From the NCBI GenBank assembly GCA_002413265.1, contig DHWR01000240.1:1-14581 (forward strand): a DNA stretch of 14,581 nucleotides, given 5' to 3'. Of the stretch, positions 787 through 12,746 are shown one piece after another. A program made the translations under genes and the position numbers. Below the pieces are notes generated by a model that made no database searches, was not told the DNA's origin, and worked only from the letters and a program-made list of their open reading frames with translations. The first letter of the stretch is position 1; every line of letters starts with the position of its first letter. Source of the stretch: Chloroflexi bacterium UBA5177 (GTDB lineage Bacteria; Chloroflexota; UBA5177).

Positions 787-1677
787 ATGAATATCGCCAT
801 AATTGGAGCTCCCGTCGACCTCGGCGCGGACCGGCGTGGAGTCGACATGGGCCCCAGCGCCATCCGCTACGCCGGCCTCGAGCAGTCGCTAAGAAACATC
901 GGCCACGAGGTCACGGATCTCGGTAACATTCCGGCTCCGGTCCCCGAGGCCATCGACACCGGCCCGCACAATTTGAAGTATCTGGCACCCATAGTCGCCA
1001 TGGCCGAGCACCTGGCGAGTAAAGTATCAGACGCTATCGACCGGGATTGCTTCCCTCTAGTCTTGGGTGGAGACCATAGCATCTCATTGGGGTCACTGAC
1101 CGGCGTCACGGCCCGGCGCCGGGTCGGGATCATCTGGATGGATGCCCACGGCGATTTCAACACCGGCGACTCATCCCCCTCGGGCAATATCCATGGTATG
1201 GTGCTCGCAGCGCTTGCCGGTTTTGGCGATGAGAAGCTCGTGAATCTGGGTGGTTTCGCACCAAAAACGAAGCCTGCAAACATCGTCGTCGTCGGGGTGA
1301 GGGAGATAGACCCGGGCGAGCGCGCCCTTCTCAGGGAACACGGCGTCATGGTCTTTACCATGCACGATATCGACCGCATGGGCCTCCCGGCCGTGATGGG
1401 GCTCGCCATAGAGCGTGCCGGAGACGGAGTCGACGGCATCCACCTCAGCCTTGATCTGGATGTCGTCGATCCCCTGCAGGCGCCGGGCGTCGGGACGCCG
1501 GTGCTCGGCGGCTTGACTTATCGCGAGACTCATCTCGCCATGGAGCTGCTCGCCTCCTCTGGCTTGACGCGATCTATCGACATTGTCGAGGTCAACCCGG
1601 TTCTCGACACTCGAAATGAGACGGCCAAGCTCGCCGTGCAATTTGCACTGTCTGCTCTCGGCAAGAAAATTATGTAG
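787..1677 (+). CDS. rocF: Arginase
   Basis: Cytosolic binuclear manganese enzyme that hydrolyses L-arginine to L-ornithine and urea. At 296 aa it has typical bacterial arginase length. Family metal-binding and substrate motifs appear in order: GGDHS (94-98, ligand H97), DAHGDFN (119-125, ligands D119, H121, D123; N125), SGNIHGM (132-138), SLDLDVVDP (221-229, ligands D223, D225) and EVNP (E268, the guanidinium-binding Glu of arginases). The SGN-HG loop and ExNP pattern favour arginase over agmatinase or formiminoglutamase. The start gives the conserved N-terminus IIGAPVDLGADRRGVDMGP. No clear SD precedes ATG 787, so initiation may be leaderless or weak. It is divergent from the sigma gene and convergent with the M20 peptidase, which it overlaps by 8 bp. 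Confidence 0.93.
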   Translation: MNIAIIGAPVDLGADRRGVDMGPSAIRYAGLEQSLRNIGHEVTDLGNIPAPVPEAIDTGPHNLKYLAPIVAMAEHLASKVSDAIDRDCFPLVLGGDHSISLGSLTGVTARRRVGIIWMDAHGDFNTGDSSPSGNIHGMVLAALAGFGDEKLVNLGGFAPKTKPANIVVVGVREIDPGERALLREHGVMVFTMHDIDRMGLPAVMGLAIERAGDGVDGIHLSLDLDVVDPLQAPGVGTPVLGGLTYRETHLAMELLASSGLTRSIDIVEVNPVLDTRNETAKLAVQFALSALGKKIM

Positions 1678-3043
1678 CCGCGGCTCTGCCCTGCGCGTAG
1701 CGCGCAACCAGCAGCGCGGTGTGCAAAGTGCCGAGCACGAAGTTTTCGATCCTGATGTTCTCGTTCGGGGCATGGATGAGGGTCTCAGGGTCTCCCACCC
1801 CAGACGTCACGATGGGGACTCCGAGCGTGTGACGGAACGGATGCATCGGGCCGGAGCCCCCGATCATCGGCCAGACGATCGGCTCCTTCCCATACACCTC
1901 GCGCGCCGTCTCGATCGCAAGCCGCACCCAGGGCTCGTCCGGATCGGTAGCCGCTGCTCGTTCGCCTCCCAGATACGTCACCTCGACGTCGCCGAAGCCT
2001 TCTCTTTCAAGGTGGCTGCATACCTTCCGATAAATGTCCTCCGGGTCCTGATCCGGAATCAGTCGGAAGTCCATCTTGGCCATGGCGCTGGACGGAATGA
2101 CGGTCTTCGCGCCGGCTCCTTGGTAGCCACTGCTGAAGCCCGCAATGTTCGCCGTCGGCGAGTAGACCGCGCGCTCCGCTGCGTCCCCGCTCAGGCCGTT
2201 TATGAACTCGCTGATTCCGTAGCTGGCGTACATGTCTTCGTCTGCGTTGGGCAATTCGGAGATCAGCTGGAGATCACGCTCGGTCGGCTTTAGCGCGTCG
2301 TCGAAGAAACCCTCCACGGCAATATGACCCTCTGGGTCCTTCAAGGTGCCCAGCGCCTGCACCAGGCGCCAAGCGGCGTTAGGCAGCAGATGAGCCATTC
2401 CTGAATGGGCGTCCCGCGACATCGTCCGAACGTCGTACTGCAGGTAGCAAATCCCCCGCATGCCCAGCGTGATCACGGGCCGGCCGGAAAAATCGACGCC
2501 TCCCGTCTCCCAGATGCAGGCGTCCGCCGCCAGCAGATCACGATGCTCCTGCACGAACTCGGGAATGTGCGGGCTGCTGATCTCCTCCCCACCCTCGATC
2601 ATGAGCTTCACCGTGCACGGCAGGTCCCCGAGCACCTCGCGCACCGCATCGAGAGCCGCCAGACGGCTGATGATGTGACCTTTGTCGTCCGCGATGCCCC
2701 GGCCGACCAGCTTGCCATCGACCCGGGTGACCTCAAAAGGTGGAGAGTTCCAGAGATCGAGCGGGTCGGCCGGCTGCACGTCGTAATGGTTGTACAGCAC
2801 CAACGAGCCGGGCCTGCCTCCCTTCCACTCGCCGTAAACCACGGGATACGACGGTGTCTCGATGAGTCTGGAGGAGAGGTCGTGCCGGCGCAGCAGATCC
2901 GCCACCAGCTCGGCTGCCGCATCCATCCCCACGCCTTGCGACGAAATGCTCGGCTGCCCCACCAGCTCCGAGAGCTCCGACAGCGACCTCTCTAGGTTCC
3001 GGTCTATGGCCTTCATGAGTTGGGTGCGAAGCTCGCCGTCCAT
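1670..3043 (-). CDS. M20 family metallopeptidase (dipeptidase, ArgE/DapE/carnosinase-like)
   Basis: Predicted cytosolic di-zinc peptidase or amidohydrolase of 457 aa, the usual length for carnosinase-like M20 dipeptidases. Visible catalytic elements: metal ligand H86 in YNHYDVQP, bridging D119 in GRGIADDKGH, catalytic base and ligand E153/E154 in EGGEEI, probable ligand E179 (WETGG), the dimerisation/lid AHSG at H213, and C-terminal ligand H424 in IHAPNENI. GMRGICY (195-201) resembles carnosinase-type members. No signal peptide is present. The start is set by AGGAGG at 3055-3050, 6 nt from ATG. The exact substrate cannot be read from sequence; a broad-specificity dipeptidase is most likely, with acetylornithine deacetylase or DapE less so. 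It converges on arginase with an 8-bp overlap at their 3' ends. Confidence 0.9.
   Translation of the reverse strand: MDGELRTQLMKAIDRNLERSLSELSELVGQPSISSQGVGMDAAAELVADLLRRHDLSSRLIETPSYPVVYGEWKGGRPGSLVLYNHYDVQPADPLDLWNSPPFEVTRVDGKLVGRGIADDKGHIISRLAALDAVREVLGDLPCTVKLMIEGGEEISSPHIPEFVQEHRDLLAADACIWETGGVDFSGRPVITLGMRGICYLQYDVRTMSRDAHSGMAHLLPNAAWRLVQALGTLKDPEGHIAVEGFFDDALKPTERDLQLISELPNADEDMYASYGISEFINGLSGDAAERAVYSPTANIAGFSSGYQGAGAKTVIPSSAMAKMDFRLIPDQDPEDIYRKVCSHLEREGFGDVEVTYLGGERAAATDPDEPWVRLAIETAREVYGKEPIVWPMIGGSGPMHPFRHTLGVPIVTSGVGDPETLIHAPNENIRIENFVLGTLHTALLVARYAQGRAAAT
1692..1706. other. Short GC hairpin just past the arginase stop
   Basis: TGCGCG, TAG loop, CGCGCA: a 6-bp perfect stem that starts 15 nt after the arginase stop, within the last codons of the convergent M20 gene. 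It might help end arginase transcripts but has no T-tract. A 12-mer core GCGCGTAGCGCG recurs at 14186-14197. Confidence 0.3.
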
Positions 3044-3273: not shown

Positions 3274-3804
3274 ATGAAGAAGGTACAGATTTTCGCCGTC
3301 CTACTCATGCTGGCGGGGGCCGGCTTCCTTAATGCGGCAGCGTCCGCGAATGCTGCGGGAAGCAGCAAGGTGGTCAGCTTCAAGGGCCATTACTCGGGAA
3401 CCGCCTCATTGCTGATCAGCGGCAGCTCCATCAAGATCATGTCCGTGACGGGCAGCGGTTCTGCCTCGCTCATCGGGGCCGGATCACTCTCCGGCACTGG
3501 CAACGCGACCGGATCAGACAACCTGTGCGTCCCCTTCAAGGGCAAAGCGTCCATCAAAGGGGCCTCGGGATCGATCAAGTTTTCCGTAAACGCTGCCAAG
3601 TCAACCGGTTGCAGTAGCGGTCAGAGTGGTCCCGTCACGGTCACCGTCAAGGGAAGCGCCAAGGTGACTGCCGGTACCGGTAAGGCCAAAGGCGCCAAGG
3701 GCACGCTCAAATTCAAGGGCACGCTCAAGCTCGACGATACCTCGGGCTTCCAGAGCGGCTCGTTTTCCGGCAGCCTCAGTGGCAAGCTAACCCTCGTCAA
3801 ATAG
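3274..3804 (+). CDS. Secreted Gly/Ser/Lys-rich repetitive protein, unknown function
   Basis: I do not recognise this 176-aa protein. It begins with a clear Sec signal peptide (MKKVQIFAVLLMLAGAGF, likely cleaved after the AAASANA region near residue 27). The mature part is very low in complexity: alternating small and polar residues with repeated short strands such as GSGSAS, GAGSLSGTG, KGTLKFKGTLKL and SGSFSGSLSGKL. The pattern is typical of an all-beta, possibly beta-solenoid or beta-barrel fold. Only two cysteines are present (C85, C113), possibly a disulfide. It is strongly basic, lacks a lipobox and lacks a transmembrane anchor. SD AGGAAGGA at 3259-3266. It is the first of three closely spaced genes for secreted proteins. 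Export is well supported; the role is unknown. Confidence 0.75.
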   Translation: MKKVQIFAVLLMLAGAGFLNAAASANAAGSSKVVSFKGHYSGTASLLISGSSIKIMSVTGSGSASLIGAGSLSGTGNATGSDNLCVPFKGKASIKGASGSIKFSVNAAKSTGCSSGQSGPVTVTVKGSAKVTAGTGKAKGAKGTLKFKGTLKLDDTSGFQSGSFSGSLSGKLTLVK

Positions 3805-3833
3805 CCGACACGAAAATTCAGGAAGGAAATCCC

Positions 3834-4388
3834 ATGAAGAGATTGATCGCACTCATCGCGGTGAGCGGCACGCTCGGCCTCGCACTTGTGACCGGGGCGC
3901 ATGCCAGCCCCGCCCACCAGACGACTACACCAACCCCCGTTCCGGGTCCACCGATCCAGGGCAACAAGGTCAACCTACTCCTCTACGTGGACACAGTGAC
4001 CGGCCCCATCGGCGGCGTCTCCTCCGTCTGTGCTCAGCAGAATCTGTTCAAGCACGGACAGATGGTGGTCTTCCGCATGTGGGGGAACAACGTCAAGGCC
4101 GCCGGAGCGGCACTGACGGCCAAAAACGTCAAGTCGGCAGTCGTCAACATCCCAGGCCTCAACCCAATCACGCTGAAGTACACGTCGCACAGCGGCAATG
4201 GTCTCCCGAAGGCTGTGTCCTACTGGGAGGCGCCCTGGGCGATTCCGGCTACCTATCCGATCGGCGTTGTGGACTTCACGGTCGTGGTCAAGACCAAGGC
4301 CAATAAGAAGGCCCACCTGAAGTCGTACACGGGATCCTTTTCCCAGCAGTATCTCTCGCCGTCCTCGAGGCTGTCGGTCACCCCCTAA
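3834..4388 (+). CDS. Secreted beta-rich protein, unknown function
   Basis: This 184-aa protein starts with a Sec signal peptide (MKRLIALIAVSGTLGLALVTGAHA, cleavage near A24), followed by a TTTPTPVPGPP proline/threonine linker to about residue 40. The mature domain has beta-like stretches: MVVFRMWGN (77-85), KSAVVNIPGLNPITLKY (100-116), YWEAPWAIPATYPIGVVDFTVVVKTKA (120-146). The pattern resembles an Ig-like sandwich domain, though I cannot name a family. A single cysteine (C66) is present. The 29-nt gap to the first gene contains the same ATTCAGGAAGGAA leader (3816-3828), giving a strong SD. The stop codon overlaps the SD of the next gene, suggesting translational coupling. Confidence 0.78.
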   Translation: MKRLIALIAVSGTLGLALVTGAHASPAHQTTTPTPVPGPPIQGNKVNLLLYVDTVTGPIGGVSSVCAQQNLFKHGQMVVFRMWGNNVKAAGAALTAKNVKSAVVNIPGLNPITLKYTSHSGNGLPKAVSYWEAPWAIPATYPIGVVDFTVVVKTKANKKAHLKSYTGSFSQQYLSPSSRLSVTP

Positions 4389-4398
4389 GGGAGTTACC

Positions 4399-5955
4399 AT
4401 GAACCTCGCACGACGCGCGCTCATCTGTCTCCTCGCCGCGACCTTCGCCTGGCCGGTCATGCCCGCCAGTGCGAACAGCAGCTTCATCGCAATCCCGACC
4501 CCGGCGATTCCCGGAGCTGCTCAGCTTCCCGGACCGGTCGCCGACGCCGCCACGCCCAGCGATCACATGGGCATCCTGAACGTGAGCCCCATCAAGGGCA
4601 TCCCTGGCACGCCCGTGACGATCTCCGGCTCCGGCCTGCCGGCTAAGACCGCGATCGTCCTCACCTGGTCGACCGCGAATGTTACCTGGGTCGTGGACCC
4701 GCAGCCGGAGACGGTGGACTACCACGGGCGGTCGGTCACGCATCTGGCTGTCGTCCTGAACCGGCTGACGACCGACGGATCCGGCGCCTTCCACGTGTCG
4801 CTGCGGGCGCCGGTCGACTTCGGCGGCCTGCACGACCTCTACGCGGTGGTTGGCCACACACAGGTCGCCCACGGCGGCTTCCTGATTCAGCGCTCGTTCT
4901 CCATCAATCCCACGAGCGGCCCGATTGGGACACCGATCACCATCACCTACCGCGGCATTGGCTCGTCCCTCTACGAGGGGGGCGGCGCCCTGCTCTACGA
5001 CAACCACTACGTCGGGGCCCTCACCGCGAACTGGACCCGCGGCACGGCGCAAGTCGTGATCCGCGCAGCCGGCCAGGTGGGCAACCACGTAGTCGGCGTC
5101 GAGGATGCCATCACGTACCCCTACCTCAACATCCAGCAGACCACCATCCCCTGGGCGCACGGCTTTAGCCGCACCTTCCGCGTGACGCGCGACGCCGGCC
5201 GTCCGGTCGCGCGCCTCGATTGGCCCGCCCAGGTGACCCCGACCCTCGACCAGCGCACCACACTGGAGGAGTTCGGGCAGGTACCTGATGGATCGGTGCG
5301 CCTGCAGCTCAGCGCGACAGCGGTCCCAGTCAACCACAGCATTACGGTGAAGGCCTCGGGGCTCACCTCCAGTGCACGGGTGTCCCTAGTGTGGTCCACG
5401 GTGGTGGGCAGCCGGATCAACTGCACGAGCATCTGCTGGACTACGGTCTCACAGCCGCTGAGCGAGGCCACGCCGACGAACGGTGTGGTCGCGACGACGG
5501 TTACATCGCCGGATGGATTAGGCGGCTGGCACGCTGTGCAGATGCTCCAGGCCGGTAAGCTCGTCGCCGAACAGCCGATCTTCCTCAAGGAGAACATCGT
5601 GGGAAGCGGCGTCTCCGCTCTCACCGTCAAGGAAGGGCAGCTCTTCACGGTGCACCTGAAGGGGATCGGCTGGACCCAACTCGACAACACCCGGGGCGTT
5701 ACTTACGACAACAGCTACATCGGCTACGGCTGCGGCTTCTCGAGCAACGGGGACATGCAGCTCGAGCTTCGCGCCACCGGCGGTGCGGGGACACATCTCA
5801 TCGACATATACCCGGTGCTGTTCACCGAGACGCCGTCCTTTGCCAACACGCCGTACGGTATGGCGCCGATGCTGACCTACGCTCGCGATCTGCCAGGACT
5901 GGCGATGGGCTACCAGCTGCCGGCAGCGCGGCTGGCGATTACCGTCGTGAACTAA
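4399..5955 (+). CDS. Secreted protein with internally duplicated Ig-like domains, unknown function
   Basis: This 518-aa exported protein has a signal peptide (MNLARRALICLLAATFAWPVMPASA) and a proline/alanine-rich linker to ~60. The rest reads as two copies of a two-domain unit. Domain A (61-165) carries GTPVTISGSGLP and VLTWST. Domain B (166-262) carries GPIGTPITITYRGIG, LLYDNHYVG and a VVIRAAG strand. A' (about 302-397) repeats NHSITVKASGL and LVWST. B' (about 402-497) repeats GQLFTVHLKGIG, VTYDNSYIG and LELRATG. The G-x-P-(V/I)-T-I start suggests IPT/TIG-like or bacterial Ig-like sandwiches. Cysteines occur only in the second half (C342, C346, C445) apart from the signal peptide. There is no C-terminal anchor or sorting motif. 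SD AAGGGAG (4387-4393) is 5 nt from ATG and 10 nt separate the genes. The 3' end overlaps the convergent MMPL gene by 17 bp. Confidence 0.82.
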   Translation: MNLARRALICLLAATFAWPVMPASANSSFIAIPTPAIPGAAQLPGPVADAATPSDHMGILNVSPIKGIPGTPVTISGSGLPAKTAIVLTWSTANVTWVVDPQPETVDYHGRSVTHLAVVLNRLTTDGSGAFHVSLRAPVDFGGLHDLYAVVGHTQVAHGGFLIQRSFSINPTSGPIGTPITITYRGIGSSLYEGGGALLYDNHYVGALTANWTRGTAQVVIRAAGQVGNHVVGVEDAITYPYLNIQQTTIPWAHGFSRTFRVTRDAGRPVARLDWPAQVTPTLDQRTTLEEFGQVPDGSVRLQLSATAVPVNHSITVKASGLTSSARVSLVWSTVVGSRINCTSICWTTVSQPLSEATPTNGVVATTVTSPDGLGGWHAVQMLQAGKLVAEQPIFLKENIVGSGVSALTVKEGQLFTVHLKGIGWTQLDNTRGVTYDNSYIGYGCGFSSNGDMQLELRATGGAGTHLIDIYPVLFTETPSFANTPYGMAPMLTYARDLPGLAMGYQLPAARLAITVVN

Positions 5956-8207: not shown

Positions 8208-8597
8208 ATGGAGCAGGACGGAATGCAGTTCGAGCTTCTGGCAGCCTCGCTCCGTGCCGATTCCACGGATCTGGCTGCTTTTACGGAAGCCCTGGCCGCC
8301 AAGCTGGAAGGGGCGCTGCCCGGACAGACCGAGTTGCAGCGCAAGGGCGGCGGGCTCTTTGGAGGGCCTAAGCGAGTCTCGAAGATAGGCGTTCAGCTCG
8401 GCGACTGCCGGTATGAGCTGCGCGTCGAAAAGCAGGGCATTGAATGTGCGCGCGGCAAATCGGTGCGTGGCATTGTTCTCAAAACCGATCAGCTGACCCT
8501 GGACGAATGGATCGACGCTCTTAGTCAGGAGCTGACGGAGCAAGCCGGGAAAAACGAGCAGGCTCGGCTGGCGCTCGAGCGCCTCGTCGGCCCTTAG
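8208..8597 (+). CDS. Small hypothetical protein, first gene of the YbjQ-domain cluster
   Basis: I do not recognise this 129-aa soluble protein. The N-terminal half is helical (ELLAASLRADSTDLAAFTEALAAKLEGAL). A glycine/lysine-rich turn (GGGLFGGPKR) follows, then beta-like strands (KIGVQLGDCRYELRVEKQGI) and VRGIVLKTDQLTLDEWIDALSQEL. The last ~30 residues are a charged helix (EQAGKNEQARLALERLV). There is no signal peptide or membrane segment. It starts 55 nt from the divergent MMPL gene. GAGGGG (8193-8198) lies 9 nt before ATG. Its stop overlaps the SD of the next gene, so it is very probably co-transcribed and coupled with the YbjQ-domain protein. A partner or regulator of those proteins is an inference from position only. 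Confidence 0.75.
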   Translation: MEQDGMQFELLAASLRADSTDLAAFTEALAAKLEGALPGQTELQRKGGGLFGGPKRVSKIGVQLGDCRYELRVEKQGIECARGKSVRGIVLKTDQLTLDEWIDALSQELTEQAGKNEQARLALERLVGP

Positions 8598-8606
8598 GGA
8601 GAAACC

Positions 8607-9569
8607 ATGCCATTCGGATTCGGCAAATCCGCCGAAGAGAAACAGCAGGACGCTCTGAGAAAAGAGCAGCTGGCCGTCGAGGAACAGCGCCGCGCCACCA
8701 GCCTCGAGTCCTTGGCTCGTGGCGGCATTCCCGTCGAGGCCACAAAGCGCCTGCAGAATGCCCGGCTGCTCGATGGATCGTTCTTCACCTCAGACCTCTC
8801 CGTCAACGAATTTCTCCTGGCCCGACAAACCAAGCTGCGGCCCATCTCTCAGGTCATGGGTAGCTCCGCTTACCACGTGGGCTGGCGCTTTATCGATTGG
8901 TATACGCCCTCCGGCGAGCTTTCGGTCCCCACGACCGCCATCAATCACGCGCGATCTCTCGCGCTCGGGCGCATGGGGCAGGAAGCCTCATTATTGGGGG
9001 CGCACGTCGTGGCCGGGGTCCGGCCACAGCTCCAGCGCTACGAATGGTCGGCCGGCATGATCGAGTTCAGCTTCGTGGGCACCGCCATGCGCTTCGAGGG
9101 CATGGAGCCGGCGCCGCTGCCCGCGCTCACCAACCTTTCAGGCCAGGACGTGTGGAAGTTGTACGCCTCCGGCCATTGGCCGCTTGGCGTCGTGGCCGGC
9201 AGCAGCGTTTACCACGCGGTCCCCAGCTGGAACCAGCGAATGTCGAGCTCGTGGGGAGGCTGGAACAACCAGGAGCTGACGGACTTCACTGCTGGCCTCT
9301 ATGCTGCTCGACACCTCGCTACACGCCACCTTCATGAGGGCGGTCTGGAGCTTGGATGCAGCGGGATCGTCGGCATGAGCATCCAGCAGGAGGAGGAAGA
9401 GTACGAGGTGCGGGGCAGCAACGACAACGAGCGCACCGACATGATATTCACCTTCCACGCCATGGGCACCGCGATAACCGAGCGTGCCCCCCGGCACACG
9501 ATTCCGCCCATTCGACAGACGATCGACCTGCGCCGTGAAACCGCGGCCGTTGTTCGCACGTTGGCGTAG
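8607..9569 (+). CDS. Double YbjQ-like (DUF74, heavy-metal-binding) domain protein
   Basis: This 320-aa soluble protein has an N-terminal charged helix (9-36, likely coiled coil) followed by two YbjQ-like domains. Domain 1 (about 59-164) begins FFTSDLSVNEFLL, then VMGSSAYHVG and ends GAHVVAGVRPQLQRYEW...FVGTAMRF. Domain 2 (about 174-295) begins NLSGQDVWKLYASG, then VVAGSSVYHAV and GCSGIVGMSIQ...FHAMGTAI. YbjQ domains are normally single ~105-aa proteins ending in an A-(D/N)-(G/A)-(V/I)-V-G-V-R segment. The family is annotated as heavy-metal-binding, but its biochemical role is not established. Domain 2 is more divergent, with an acidic insertion (QEEEEYEVRGSNDNE). SD AGGGAG (8596-8601), 5-nt spacer. 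Paralogous to the next gene. Confidence 0.82.
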   Translation: MPFGFGKSAEEKQQDALRKEQLAVEEQRRATSLESLARGGIPVEATKRLQNARLLDGSFFTSDLSVNEFLLARQTKLRPISQVMGSSAYHVGWRFIDWYTPSGELSVPTTAINHARSLALGRMGQEASLLGAHVVAGVRPQLQRYEWSAGMIEFSFVGTAMRFEGMEPAPLPALTNLSGQDVWKLYASGHWPLGVVAGSSVYHAVPSWNQRMSSSWGGWNNQELTDFTAGLYAARHLATRHLHEGGLELGCSGIVGMSIQQEEEEYEVRGSNDNERTDMIFTFHAMGTAITERAPRHTIPPIRQTIDLRRETAAVVRTLA

Positions 9570-9584
9570 CAATCCCGTGTAGCT

Positions 9585-9602
9585 GCACCCCTTTAGGGGT
9601 GC
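9585..9602. other. Perfect hairpin between the two YbjQ-domain genes
   Basis: GCACCCC, TTTA loop, GGGGTGC: a 7-bp perfect stem 15 nt after the upstream stop. No T-tract follows, so it is either a weak terminator or a processing/stability element that could set different levels for the two paralogs. Confidence 0.45.
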
Positions 9603-9677
9603 CCCCAACCAATCAGCCCCCGTAGCGCCTCCCAATGACCCAAATTCCCATGTAACCCGCCCGGTTTAGGGCATCCC

Positions 9678-9691
9678 GAGAGAGAGAGAGG
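9678..9691 (+). repeat. GA dinucleotide run forming the ribosome site of the second YbjQ gene
   Basis: A (GA)6-GG run ends 7 nt before ATG 9699, so its terminal GAGAGG is the probable SD. Runs like this can slip, but length changes here would alter only the leader. Confidence 0.5.
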
Positions 9692-9698
9692 AAAAACC

Positions 9699-10517
9699 AT
9701 GACCTACGATCCCGCATCCTTGGAAGGCGTCCCGACGCACGGGCGAGAGCGCATCGAGCGCATGAAGGAGGCCGAAAAACGCGGCTTCTTCACCAGCGAT
9801 CTATCCGTCAACGAATTCCTGCTCGTGAAGCAGGCGGGCTTTGATCCACTCGGTCTGGTCGTCGGCAGCTCGATCTATCACATCGGATATCAGCAGTCGA
9901 ACTGGAGCCAGAACCAGGAGATGGAAGTTCTCACGCAGGCGATGTACCACGCCCGTGAGCTCGCCATGACTCGCATGGAGGAAGAGGCGGACCAGGTAGG
10001 CGCGGATGGCGTCGTCGGCGTGCGTCTCGAGGTGGGCCGCTATGAATGGGGTGAGCATCTCGCCGAGTTCATCGCCATCGGCACCGCCGTGAGGCACCGC
10101 GAAGGCAAGCTGCACAGAGCGCCCAACAACCGGCCGTTCACCAGCGACCTGTCGGGTCAAGATTTCTGGACCCTTCTCTCGGCCGGCTATCGCCCAGTCG
10201 GATTGGTGATGGGTAACTGCGTCTATCACGTGGCCCATCAGGGTCTGCGCGGCATGTTCAAGCAGATGGGCCAGAACGTCGAGATGCCCAACTACACCCA
10301 GGCCCTGTACGATGCCCGAGAGCTGGCCATGGAACGCATGCAGGCCGAAGCCGAGGGTGTGCAAGCCGAGGGCATCGTCGGCGTCCAGCTCCAGGAACGC
10401 AGCCACGGCTGGGGCTCGCACGTCATCGAATTTTTCTCGGTTGGCACGGCAGTTGTGCCGACCACCGAGGATCACCAGATTCCCACCCCATCATTGGTGC
10501 TCGGCCTGAACGACTAA
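9699..10517 (+). CDS. Double YbjQ-like (DUF74) domain protein, paralog of the upstream gene
   Basis: A 272-aa soluble protein with two YbjQ-like domains. Domain 1 (about 29-132): FFTSDLSVNEFLL, VVGSSIYHIG, AMYHARELAMTRMEEEA, GADGVVGVRLEVGRYEWGEH, FIAIGTAV. Domain 2 (about 135-253): RPFTSDLSGQDFW, VMGNCVYHVA, ALYDARELAMERMQAEA, AEGIVGVQLQ, FFSVGTAV. Here both domains keep the family's alternating pattern, while the upstream paralog is more divergent. Domain 1 of each protein shares TSDLSVNEFLL and domain 2 of each shares LSGQD, so a two-domain gene probably duplicated as a unit (inference). No signal peptide or membrane segment. A 129-nt gap with a hairpin separates it from the first paralog; ComEC starts 33 nt downstream. 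Confidence 0.85.
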   Translation: MTYDPASLEGVPTHGRERIERMKEAEKRGFFTSDLSVNEFLLVKQAGFDPLGLVVGSSIYHIGYQQSNWSQNQEMEVLTQAMYHARELAMTRMEEEADQVGADGVVGVRLEVGRYEWGEHLAEFIAIGTAVRHREGKLHRAPNNRPFTSDLSGQDFWTLLSAGYRPVGLVMGNCVYHVAHQGLRGMFKQMGQNVEMPNYTQALYDARELAMERMQAEAEGVQAEGIVGVQLQERSHGWGSHVIEFFSVGTAVVPTTEDHQIPTPSLVLGLND

Positions 10518-10550
10518 AACTCCGAGAGCGGCGCCCTGGCGGGAGGCTTC

Positions 10551-12746
10551 ATGATCCTTGCCTGGCTGGCATGCGCCTTTGTCGCGGGCATCGTGCTGGG
10601 CTCGTGGATCGGGTTGCCGCTCATTCCCTTGCTGATCCTGGCGGCGCTCGGCACTGCCACGGCCCTCCTGCGCTGCAGGAGACGCGGTTGGACGGCCGCG
10701 GCCGTGTTAGCCATGCTGCTTCTCGGTGCGGCGCGCGCCCCAGGTGCAGCAGGCCCGCCCGGACCGCATGACCTGAGCTATTACAACGGCCGCACCGTCC
10801 AGCTGTCGGGCGTGGTCACTGCAGAACCGGACATCAGAGACACCGGCGCGAATTATGTCGTAACTGCAAAACAGCTCACGGCGGGCGGCAAGGCCCGTCC
10901 GATTTCTGGTCAGCTCGAGCTCCATCTGCCCCTGAGCCAGCCGCTGGCATATGGGGATGTGGTCGTGCTCAGTGGGAGGCTCCGCACTCCGTCCAATGCC
11001 GCGGGCACCGCTTTTCGAGACATCCTGGCTCGCAGGGGCATCCGCTCAACCATGAGCTTCGTCCGGGTTATCGATAGGGGCCCGAGTAACACCGGCCTGG
11101 CCGGTTGGTTCGTCATGTTGCGCCAGTCGATCGAACGGAACATCGACTCCTGGCTACCGGAACCGGAGGCCTCACTGTTGATCGCCATAACTCTCGGGGC
11201 GAGAAGCGCCTCACTGGGTGATCTAGCGCCGGCATTTGTCGCCACGGGCTTGATTCACATCGTCGCCATTTCCGGCATAAAAGTAGCCATGGTCGCCGGC
11301 ACCATGTTCGAGCTGGCACGCCTTCTCAGGCGTCGCTTCCTCACCCTGACCTCGGCCTTGCTCGCGCTCTGGATCTACGTGTTGCTGACCGGCCTCACCG
11401 TCTCGGGCGTCCGCTCCGCGATCATGTGGACGCTCGTCTTCATCTCTTCGTACCTGGGCAGAACGACGGTCACGCTCGTCTCGCTCGCGGCCGCCGCGGC
11501 GGTCATGGTGGGCTTGCAGCCCGACCTCATATCGGATATCGGTTTTCAGCTTTCGACCATCGGCACCTTCGCCATCGTCGCCTTCACTCCGCCGCTCAGC
11601 CGTCTGTTTAGTCGCGTGCCATCGCCATTCAGAGAGTCGTTGAGCGTAACCCTGGCTGCCCAGCTGGGGACGCTTCCCGTGGTTGCGATCGGCTTCGGGA
11701 CGGTCTCGGCCATTGGACCAATCGCCAACGCGCTCGTCCTCCCGCTGCTGCCTCTCTTGATCATCTTCGGCTTCGTACTGGGTGCGATCGGAGGCATCCC
11801 AGGCCTGGCCGCGCCACTGGCAGGCGTGACCTCTGCCCTCCTACATTTCGTATTGACTCTGACGGTGTGGCTTGCCAGGGTACCGGCGTTTCATACCGGA
11901 GGTCCGTTGGGAGTGCCTGCAATCGCCGCGTACTACGTGGCATTAGCCGTCATCGCCGGATGGTTGCTGAGGAAATCGAACTGGGCACCGGTGGCGCAAT
12001 GGGCAAGTCGCGGCCGTGAAGTTCTGATTGCCGGCGCCGTTGGGCTCACACTGCTGAGCGCCTCCGAAGCGATGGCGACCACGGTTCAACCAGCGCAACT
12101 GGTGTGGCTGGGTTCCGGTGAAGCTATCCTGCTCACGACGCCACACCGCGCCGTTCTCATCGACGGCTCACCACATCCACTGGCGCTTTTGCGAGGGCTC
12201 GGCTCACGGCTCCTCGGCCGTTCCAGAGAGCTGGACGCCGTCATCGTCACCGATCCTCGGGGCTCGAATATCACCGGCTTGCGCGCTGTGATAGCCCGCT
12301 ACGCGGTTCGCGAAGTCCTCGATGTCGGCACCGAGTATCCCTCCGCAACCTACGCCGCTTGGCGCTCGGATCTCGAGCATCGACACATCCCGGTCACGGC
12401 CCTGCGCACCGGAGTGGCCATCAGCGTAGAAGGCGTGAACCTTGCTGCCATCGCGCCGGACGATGTCTGCTCGGTTCCCGTCAACTGCGTCGGAATGTTG
12501 CGCATTGTCGTCGGTCCTCATACTGTCCTACTCGCCGGATCATCGAGCGCCCGAGAGCAGCGAGAGGCACTATTCCGACGTGTCCCCATTAGCGCAGACA
12601 CCCTCGTCTTCACCACGACCAAAGCCCACGACGCACTATTCACTCGACGCTCCGCCCGCTCCGCAACCCACGTCGTCTCACTCCCAGGATCCGGACCTTC
12701 GTCCGCCGCAGTCAGCACGACGACGAGAATCCTGGCTAGTCGCTAA
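10551..12746 (+). CDS. comEC: ComEC/Rec2-type DNA uptake channel with degenerate metallo-beta-lactamase domain
   Basis: Polytopic membrane protein of 731 aa that in naturally competent bacteria carries single-stranded DNA across the inner membrane. The order is normal: N-terminal TM segments (1-60), an OB-fold-like DUF4131 region (about 75-175: GRTVQLSGVV, YGDVVVLSGRL, FRDILARRGI), the Competence membrane domain (about 200-475: HIVAISGIKV at 236-245, TGLTVSGVRSAIM at 280-292, DIGFQLSTIGTFAI), one more TM (490-508), then a metallo-beta-lactamase-like region (about 513-731: LLTTPHRAVLIDGS). The usual THxHxDHxGG is TDPRGSNITG (567-576), LLTGD is LLAGS (660-664), and the HHGS motif is absent (TTTKAHD, 688-694). 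Nuclease activity from this domain therefore looks lost. SD GGGAGG, 4-nt spacer. No other competence genes are in the window. Confidence 0.9.
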   Translation: MILAWLACAFVAGIVLGSWIGLPLIPLLILAALGTATALLRCRRRGWTAAAVLAMLLLGAARAPGAAGPPGPHDLSYYNGRTVQLSGVVTAEPDIRDTGANYVVTAKQLTAGGKARPISGQLELHLPLSQPLAYGDVVVLSGRLRTPSNAAGTAFRDILARRGIRSTMSFVRVIDRGPSNTGLAGWFVMLRQSIERNIDSWLPEPEASLLIAITLGARSASLGDLAPAFVATGLIHIVAISGIKVAMVAGTMFELARLLRRRFLTLTSALLALWIYVLLTGLTVSGVRSAIMWTLVFISSYLGRTTVTLVSLAAAAAVMVGLQPDLISDIGFQLSTIGTFAIVAFTPPLSRLFSRVPSPFRESLSVTLAAQLGTLPVVAIGFGTVSAIGPIANALVLPLLPLLIIFGFVLGAIGGIPGLAAPLAGVTSALLHFVLTLTVWLARVPAFHTGGPLGVPAIAAYYVALAVIAGWLLRKSNWAPVAQWASRGREVLIAGAVGLTLLSASEAMATTVQPAQLVWLGSGEAILLTTPHRAVLIDGSPHPLALLRGLGSRLLGRSRELDAVIVTDPRGSNITGLRAVIARYAVREVLDVGTEYPSATYAAWRSDLEHRHIPVTALRTGVAISVEGVNLAAIAPDDVCSVPVNCVGMLRIVVGPHTVLLAGSSSAREQREALFRRVPISADTLVFTTTKAHDALFTRRSARSATHVVSLPGSGPSSAAVSTTTRILASR

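What the first reader, a model, noticed from the sequence alone, without database searches (positions are those of the whole stretch)
8208..10517. Cluster of a small protein and two paralogous double-YbjQ (DUF74) proteins
YbjQ-like domains normally occur singly in ~105-aa proteins. Here four domains sit in two adjacent genes (8607-9569, 9699-10517), in a fixed order marked by TSDLSVNEFLL in each first domain and LSGQD in each second. An uncharacterised 129-aa gene overlaps the SD of the first. The paralogs have diverged: the first has a coiled-coil N-terminus and an acidic insertion in domain 2, the second keeps both domains cleaner. This looks like a two-component oligomeric system of unknown function. 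A role in metal or stress response is only a guess from the family label.
Basis: partly seen in the sequence, partly recalled or inferred. Interest (0 to 1): 0.7.

Follow-up and report, generated by a model that had tools for sequence, protein, structure and literature searches.

The report
Conserved S-A-B tandem-YbjQ gene module
Three neighbouring bacterial genes of unknown function turn out to belong to a widely conserved unit, two of them chains of repeated ring-forming YbjQ domains and the third a small, nearly constant partner, and the unit appears to include a little-understood gene pair of mycobacteria.

Summary
The 320-aa (A) and 272-aa (B) proteins each hold two YbjQ (DUF74) domains; both pass Pfam's cut-off. 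The tandem arose before A and B separated. The 129-aa gene (S) is no bystander. Of the 80 named loci kept that carry B, 71 have S within 2.5 kb and 7 of the other 9 are cut by a contig end; the commonest order is S-A-B (54). In 296 Actinomycetota genomes, 10 have B: 8 of these have S, and 2 have DUF5073, a remote relative of S, directly behind B. S was found in none of the other 286. A is optional.

The mycobacterial form fits the published pair Rv1762c-Rv1761c. Rv1762c was reported to appear consistently in purified 25-nm nanocompartment preparations. Only 5 of 27 B-carrying genomes tested have a PF04454 encapsulin, so B does not need one. My best reading is an oligomeric particle of stacked YbjQ pentamers, with S as assembly partner or regulator. 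The module is shown; the particle is inferred; the cellular job is open. A metal role rests mainly on a family name. ComEC and MMPL neighbours are incidental; an acyltransferase follows the module in one A-less lineage.

The parts
8208..8597 (+). S, 129-aa partner protein; remote relative of DUF5073; no Pfam family over cut-off
8607..9569 (+). A, 320-aa diverged tandem-YbjQ protein
8781..9095 (+). A, first YbjQ domain (TSDLSVNEFLL at 8787-8819)
   Evidence: sequence, alignment A3; limits approximate
9117..9479 (+). A, second YbjQ domain (LSGQD)
   Evidence: sequence, alignment A3; limits approximate
9387..9440 (+). acidic insert in domain 2 of A
   Evidence: alignment A3: extra residues in most printed A rows, none in printed B rows
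9699..10517 (+). B, 272-aa highly conserved tandem-YbjQ protein
9786..10100 (+). B, first YbjQ domain
   Evidence: alignment A1 and AlphaFold2 model; limits approximate
10131..10466 (+). B, second YbjQ domain
   Evidence: alignment A1 and AlphaFold2 model; limits approximate
10467..10514 (+). B, conserved C-terminal tail (majority form P-x-M-V-L-T-L-N-D)
   Evidence: alignment A1; pLDDT 79 for residues 261-270 and 65 for the last two

Best explanation
S, A and B are one functional module. B is the conserved core: two YbjQ domains in one chain. As single YbjQ proteins form pentamer rings, B most likely assembles through its two domain types into coaxial (two-tier) rings or a larger particle built from them. 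A is a diverged paralog that probably joins or decorates the same assembly. S, a small alpha/beta protein, is the partner nearly always present, and most likely acts on the B assembly as chaperone, cap or regulator. Shown here: the module, its breadth, the order of events (tandem first, then A/B split), the remote S-DUF5073 kinship and the B-DUF5073 gene pair. Inferred: the identity with Rv1762c-Rv1761c, the ring stacking, the particle and what S does. Not known: the cellular task.
For: Pfam YbjQ_1 over cut-off in A and B and matched at E <= 0.01 by 87 of 87 rows of the A+B alignment. The AlphaFold2 model of B (mean pLDDT 87.9) matches YbjQ structures 1y2i and 1vr4 (Foldseek E 5.8e-5 and 2.1e-4). 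Two solved YbjQ proteins are homopentamers, one with subunits in different folds (PMC2954204, passages). Natural three-domain versions P0002 and P0024 suit a stack of rings. S beside B in 71 of 80 loci. In 61 genomes (own plus 60 relatives) B is in 13, S in 15, both in 13. In 296 Actinomycetota genomes B is in 10, S in 8 of these, DUF5073 beside B in the other 2, S in 0 of the remaining 286. S also lies beside B on all 3 plasmid records found. Second domains of A and B form one supported clade (100/98). The apparent mycobacterial counterpart Rv1762c was consistently found in a purified 25-nm nanocompartment fraction (PMC8635971).
Against: No oligomer was modelled or measured; only single chains could be predicted. 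The nanocompartment observation concerns one distant relative (the mycobacteria-like copy is 52% identical to window B) and may reflect a contaminant or an encapsulin associate. S-B contact is unproven; adjacency can reflect co-transfer. 2 of 80 loci have B without adjacent S although upstream sequence is held (L104, with an S-A pair about 7 kb away, and L130); in G146 S lies about 40 kb from B; in G007 and G029 they are on different contigs, and G019 and G035 have S but no B. The S model is only moderately confident (75.6) and has no clear structural match.
Confidence: 0.45

Rival explanations
1. B-type proteins are encapsulin cargo or encapsulin-associated proteins, and S-A-B serves encapsulin nanocompartments.
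For: Rv1762c was consistently found in Mtb nanocompartment preparations (PMC8635971). 5 of 14 further B-carrying genomes also carry an encapsulin, among them both DUF5073 genomes. B ends in a conserved tail, as a docking peptide might.
Against: 0 of the 13 B-carrying genomes among 61 have PF04454, and none of the 5 of those 61 that have it carries full-length B. 9 of 14 further B genomes lack it. Family 2 encapsulins were not searched, and several genomes are incomplete.
Confidence: 0.12
2. The proteins bind or buffer a transition metal, as the Pfam label says.
For: Pfam calls YbjQ_1 putative heavy-metal-binding. B keeps His61, Cys174, His177, His236 and His241 in at least 95% of 55 B rows. 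A cation-efflux gene (PF01545) lies downstream in 8 of 91 loci.
Against: The label is a name, not a test. In the 30 A rows the matching positions vary (His61 60% His; Cys174 57% Ser; His177 70% Tyr). The 8 cation-efflux loci are all in one A-less lineage, on the other strand and 0.75 to 5.5 kb away.
Confidence: 0.2
3. The module works on membrane lipids or the envelope, with neighbouring acyltransferase, MMPL or ComEC genes as hints.
For: A PF01553 acyltransferase-type gene follows B on the same strand in 13 of the 14 A-less S-B loci (two of the 13 scanned). A wax ester synthase/DGAT gene lies beside the pair in both DUF5073 loci. MMPL and ComEC flank the module in the window.
Against: The acyltransferase was found in no other of the loci scanned. 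ComEC occurs in 1 of 95 other loci, MMPL in 3 of 95. Each hint is limited to one lineage.
Confidence: 0.08
4. The cluster is an anti-phage or mobile-element conflict system.
For: Patchy presence within families; closer B similarity to Actinomycetota records than to Ktedonobacteria hints at transfer; three plasmids carry S and B.
Against: No PADLOC hit for S, A or B, no match in 50,697 phage records, no relative in the viral contig scan, 3 of 72,556 plasmid records. B is very conserved, unlike many arms-race proteins.
Confidence: 0.06

Closest known systems
YbjQ / UPF0145 / DUF74 single-domain proteins (1y2i, 1vr4, 2gtc)
   Same: Same Pfam family and fold
   Different: One domain of about 105 aa; here two per chain with distinct first and second domain types, plus partner S. 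The window's genome also has a single-domain YbjQ elsewhere (C285).
Rv1762c-Rv1761c of Mycobacterium tuberculosis
   Same: Rv1762c has two DUF74 domains (PMC9846648, passages); a heavy metal-binding domain gene and a DUF5073 gene are consecutive in a published M. bovis gene list (PMC11449866, passage). The mycobacteria-like copy is 52% identical to window B and 32% to window A
   Different: No A gene found beside the pair in the two loci read, order B-S, S partner strongly diverged
Encapsulin nanocompartments and their cargo
   Same: Rv1762c appears in the nanocompartment fraction (PMC8635971)
   Different: 22 of 27 B-carrying genomes tested lack PF04454
RcsF, DUF1471, IgaA periplasmic domain
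   Same: Similar small alpha/beta fold: RcsF and IgaA by Foldseek, RcsF and DUF1471 by PMC4092069 (passages)
   Different: RcsF and IgaA are envelope proteins; no S partner is known to me

Membership tests
YbjQ_1 (PF01906) | Profile score over the curated cut-off of 23 bits | tested here: met
   A 42.7, B 86.6 bits, two stretches each
YbjQ_1 (PF01906) | YbjQ fold | tested here: met
   B model matches 1y2i and 1vr4 with E < 1e-3; A was not modelled
YbjQ_1 (PF01906) | Pentameric assembly | not testable with these tools
   Only single chains could be predicted
YbjQ_1 (PF01906) | Heavy-metal binding (family label) | not testable with these tools
   No assay; label only
DUF5073 (PF16817), for S | Profile score over the curated cut-off of 27 bits | tested here: not met
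   Window S gives no DUF5073 match up to E 1. 14 of 87 S rows match at E <= 1, best 2.7e-4; L180 scores 21.5 bits
DUF5073 (PF16817), for S | Detectable kinship by profile comparison and the same gene neighbour | tested here: met
   hhalign 79% probability, pairwise E 1.6e-5, 63 columns; the 2 of 296 genomes with DUF5073 over its cut-off both have it 2 or 5 bp behind the B match. So S is a remote relative, not a member
Encapsulin cargo, for B | An encapsulin shell gene (PF04454) in the same genome | tested here: not met
   Not found in the window's genome (88.9% complete) nor in the other 12 B-carrying relatives; present in 5 of 14 further B genomes
Anti-phage defence (PADLOC-DB) | Match to a model of a defence protein | tested here: not met
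   0 families for S, A and B up to E 1

The most novel reading that the evidence does not exclude
Tandem-YbjQ proteins build a widespread, previously unrecognised protein particle, a pentamer-based stack or small shell of near-megadalton size unrelated to encapsulins. Chain length (two or three domains) sets the number of tiers, A is a minor shell component and S (DUF5073-like) its cap or assembly switch. The unexplained protein in the Mtb nanocompartment fraction would then be this second particle co-sedimenting.
Probability: 0.22. Interest if true: 0.85.

Novelty: new variant of a known kind. Interest (0 to 1): 0.58.

Why it matters
It turns three anonymous genes into a defined module with a conserved partner, found in records labelled Chloroflexi, Ktedonobacteria, Actinobacteria, Armatimonadetes and Bacillota and on a cyanobacterial plasmid. 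It gives an unexplained mycobacterial gene pair a family and a testable hypothesis (a separate large assembly rather than encapsulin cargo). It also gives YbjQ, a family with solved structures but no established function, a partner to test.

Full report
WHAT IS THERE. The window lies in a 3.03-Mb draft genome of 321 contigs, 88.9% complete. Three same-strand genes sit at 8208-8597 (S, 129 aa), 8607-9569 (A, 320 aa) and 9699-10517 (B, 272 aa). A and B each hold two YbjQ_1 stretches above the Pfam cut-off. The same genome has a separate single-domain YbjQ on contig C285.

CONSERVATION. B is remarkably conserved: 85-86% identity within the family, 78-82% to the nearest Actinomycetota-labelled records, 70-74% to Ktedonobacteria, 69-71% to Bacillota and 67-74% to Armatimonadota-type records. 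In 57 loci where S, A and B could all be aligned, median pairwise identity is 0.68 for B, 0.34 for A and 0.35 for S. That set was cut down: ten loci with broken, split or partial genes were left out by hand (L035, L042, L051-L054, L058, L104, L116, L131), and loci without all three were not usable. Distances correlate (S-B 0.62, A-B 0.74, S-A 0.80; 0 of 999 shuffles as high), which shows co-inheritance, not contact.

THE MODULE. In these 80 the order is S-A-B in 54, S-B in 14, S-A-A-B in 2, A-B-S in 1. Of the 9 without adjacent S, 7 hold under 1.6 kb upstream and 2 (L104, L130) lack it with flank held; L104 has an S-A pair about 7 kb upstream. In 61 genomes (own plus 60 relatives) 13 have full-length B (E < 1e-80) and 15 have S; all 13 are among the 15. 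The S-only genomes are G019 and G035 (57% and 87% complete). In G007 and G029 S and B lie on different contigs. Five of the seven families with B (f4, f6, f11, f18, f19) also contain genomes without it, so the pair tends to come and go together. All three plasmid records with a B match have an S match beside it: A-B-S in two Streptomyces (E 7e-30, 8e-27) and S-B in Aulosira (E 2e-10).

ACTINOMYCETOTA. In an even sample of 296 genomes, full-length B occurs in 10 (E <= 3.3e-93). Eight of the ten have S. The other two, G162 and G216, are the only genomes with DUF5073 above its cut-off, and there the DUF5073 match lies 2 and 5 bp behind the B match. None of the other 286 has an S match at E <= 1e-3, though only the best 14 candidates per genome were scored. 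Two weaker DUF5073 hits fell below the cut-off: one in G255 is its S gene, one in G252, which has no B, was not followed. S or DUF5073 is adjacent to the tandem-YbjQ genes in 9 of 10; in G146 S lies about 40 kb away. One search also lists shorter matches in 22 further genomes, most with a frame about the length of a single YbjQ domain, not counted as B.

S AND DUF5073. Window S itself fails the DUF5073 model. 14 of 87 S rows match it weakly; one scores 21.5 bits against a cut-off of 27. The S profile against PDB 2k3m (Rv1761c) gives only E 0.47, with shared LPG, GDxRYE and VxGIV elements. Comparison with the mycobacteria-like protein gives E 1.6e-5. With the shared position beside B, I conclude remote kinship, not membership.

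THE MYCOBACTERIAL PAIR. The B-type protein of G216 (L146) is 262 aa, 52% identical to window B and 32% to window A. Its named relatives in the list are mostly Mycobacterium and Nocardia. The DUF5073 protein beside it closely resembles the 2k3m sequence shown (my reading). A published gene list has DUF5073 and heavy metal-binding domain genes in a row (PMC11449866, passage), and Rv1762c is described as 789 bp, non-essential, with two DUF74-type domains (PMC9846648, passages). That these are the B-S pair follows from family, order and length; I did not fetch the H37Rv locus. [quoted passage not shown] A proteome study lists it as higher in intracellular BCG than in M. tuberculosis (PMC8995892, passages).

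ENCAPSULIN TEST. PF04454 was found in none of the 13 B-carrying genomes among the 61; the 5 that have it lack full-length B. Of 14 further B-carrying genomes 5 have it. So 5 of 27. Family 2 encapsulins were not searched.

NEIGHBOURS. ComEC, next door in the window, recurs in 1 of 95 other loci and MMPL in 3 of 95 (101 sources less the window and five duplicate contigs; four of the 95, L051-L054, hold no full-length B, and many flanks are short). Nothing recurs across the whole set, but lineage-limited neighbours do: an acyltransferase-type gene directly after B in 13 of the 14 A-less S-B loci, a cation-efflux gene in 8 of those 13, and pyruvate kinase on the other strand in 8 S-A-B loci. Both DUF5073 loci adjoin a wax ester synthase/DGAT gene. 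I raised the lipid rival from 0.04 to 0.08 for this; the other odds stand.

ORIGIN. In a tree of 69 single domains, a subsample of 171, the second domains of A and B form one clade (100/98) apart from the first domains. The tandem therefore arose before A and B parted. The program warned of few columns, an unsettled bootstrap and long branches that meet; the first domains of A are not one group in it. Three-domain relatives P0002 and P0024 exist, whose middle domain begins like a second domain and ends like a first (reading of the sequence).

STRUCTURE. The B model (mean pLDDT 87.9, pTM 0.84) shows two similar alpha/beta halves and matches 1y2i and 1vr4. YbjQ proteins 1y2i and 1vr4 are pentamers, the latter with subunits in different folds (PMC2954204, passages). 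The S model (75.6, pTM 0.67) is helix-helix, five strands, helix-helix, with no clear match.

MECHANISM. Best reading: B, with A where present, assembles through pentameric YbjQ rings into tiers or a larger particle, and S assists or regulates it. Each step after the module itself is inferred. I put 0.45 on this, 0.2 on a metal role (which is not exclusive), 0.12 on encapsulin cargo, 0.08 on lipids. In E. coli, single-domain YbjQ rises while depolarised persisters recover (PMC6414554, passage), a loose hint of a recovery or stress context. Residues invariant in 55 B rows include Arg18, Asp34, Glu39, His61, Arg92, Cys174, His177, Asn193 and Glu195; only some persist in 30 A rows (rows L031 and L032 of the alignment were left out).

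LIMITS. Co-occurrence counts are not corrected for phylogeny; the 80 loci are the best-scoring and so biased to close relatives; record labels of MAGs may be wrong; no oligomer was modelled.

Noticed in passing
P0002, P0024: Natural three-domain YbjQ proteins whose middle domain is a hybrid of second-domain start and first-domain end.
   Followed up: partly
P0061, P0063, P0067, P0079: B relatives that also carry PF10708 (DUF2510, name from recall); in the two read (P0061, P0063) the extra part is N-terminal.
   Followed up: partly
L064, L065, L069, L070, L073, L075, L076, L077, L079, L084, L088, L095, L097: In 13 of the 14 A-less S-B loci a PF01553-type acyltransferase gene follows B on the same strand.
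   Followed up: partly
L104:1697-2982 and 9938-10810: An S-A pair lies about 7 kb upstream of a separate B gene.
   Followed up: no
L048, L042: Expanded clusters: three tandem-YbjQ hits in each, with two S genes in L048.
   Followed up: no
G062:C1:1141287-1142784: A second set of tandem-YbjQ genes in a Conexibacter genome that also has the S-B locus.
   Followed up: no
L143:4297-4935, L144:4167-4841: Both Streptomyces plasmid operons have a 212-224 aa hypothetical gene upstream of A, with no Pfam match.
   Followed up: partly
L145:5595-6696: S and a tandem-YbjQ relative (42% identity to B) on a conjugative plasmid of the cyanobacterium Aulosira laxa.
   Followed up: partly
PDB 2k3m versus window:8208-8597: Rv1761c is listed as a membrane protein (PMC6151718, passage), while the S model is a mixed alpha/beta fold; no membrane-segment program was run.
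   Followed up: no
window 787-1677 and 1670-3043: Arginase gene and an M20-type peptidase gene overlap tail to tail.
   Followed up: no
window 3274-5955: Three consecutive same-strand genes with signal-like N-termini (176, 184, 518 aa), no NCBIfam match.
   Followed up: no
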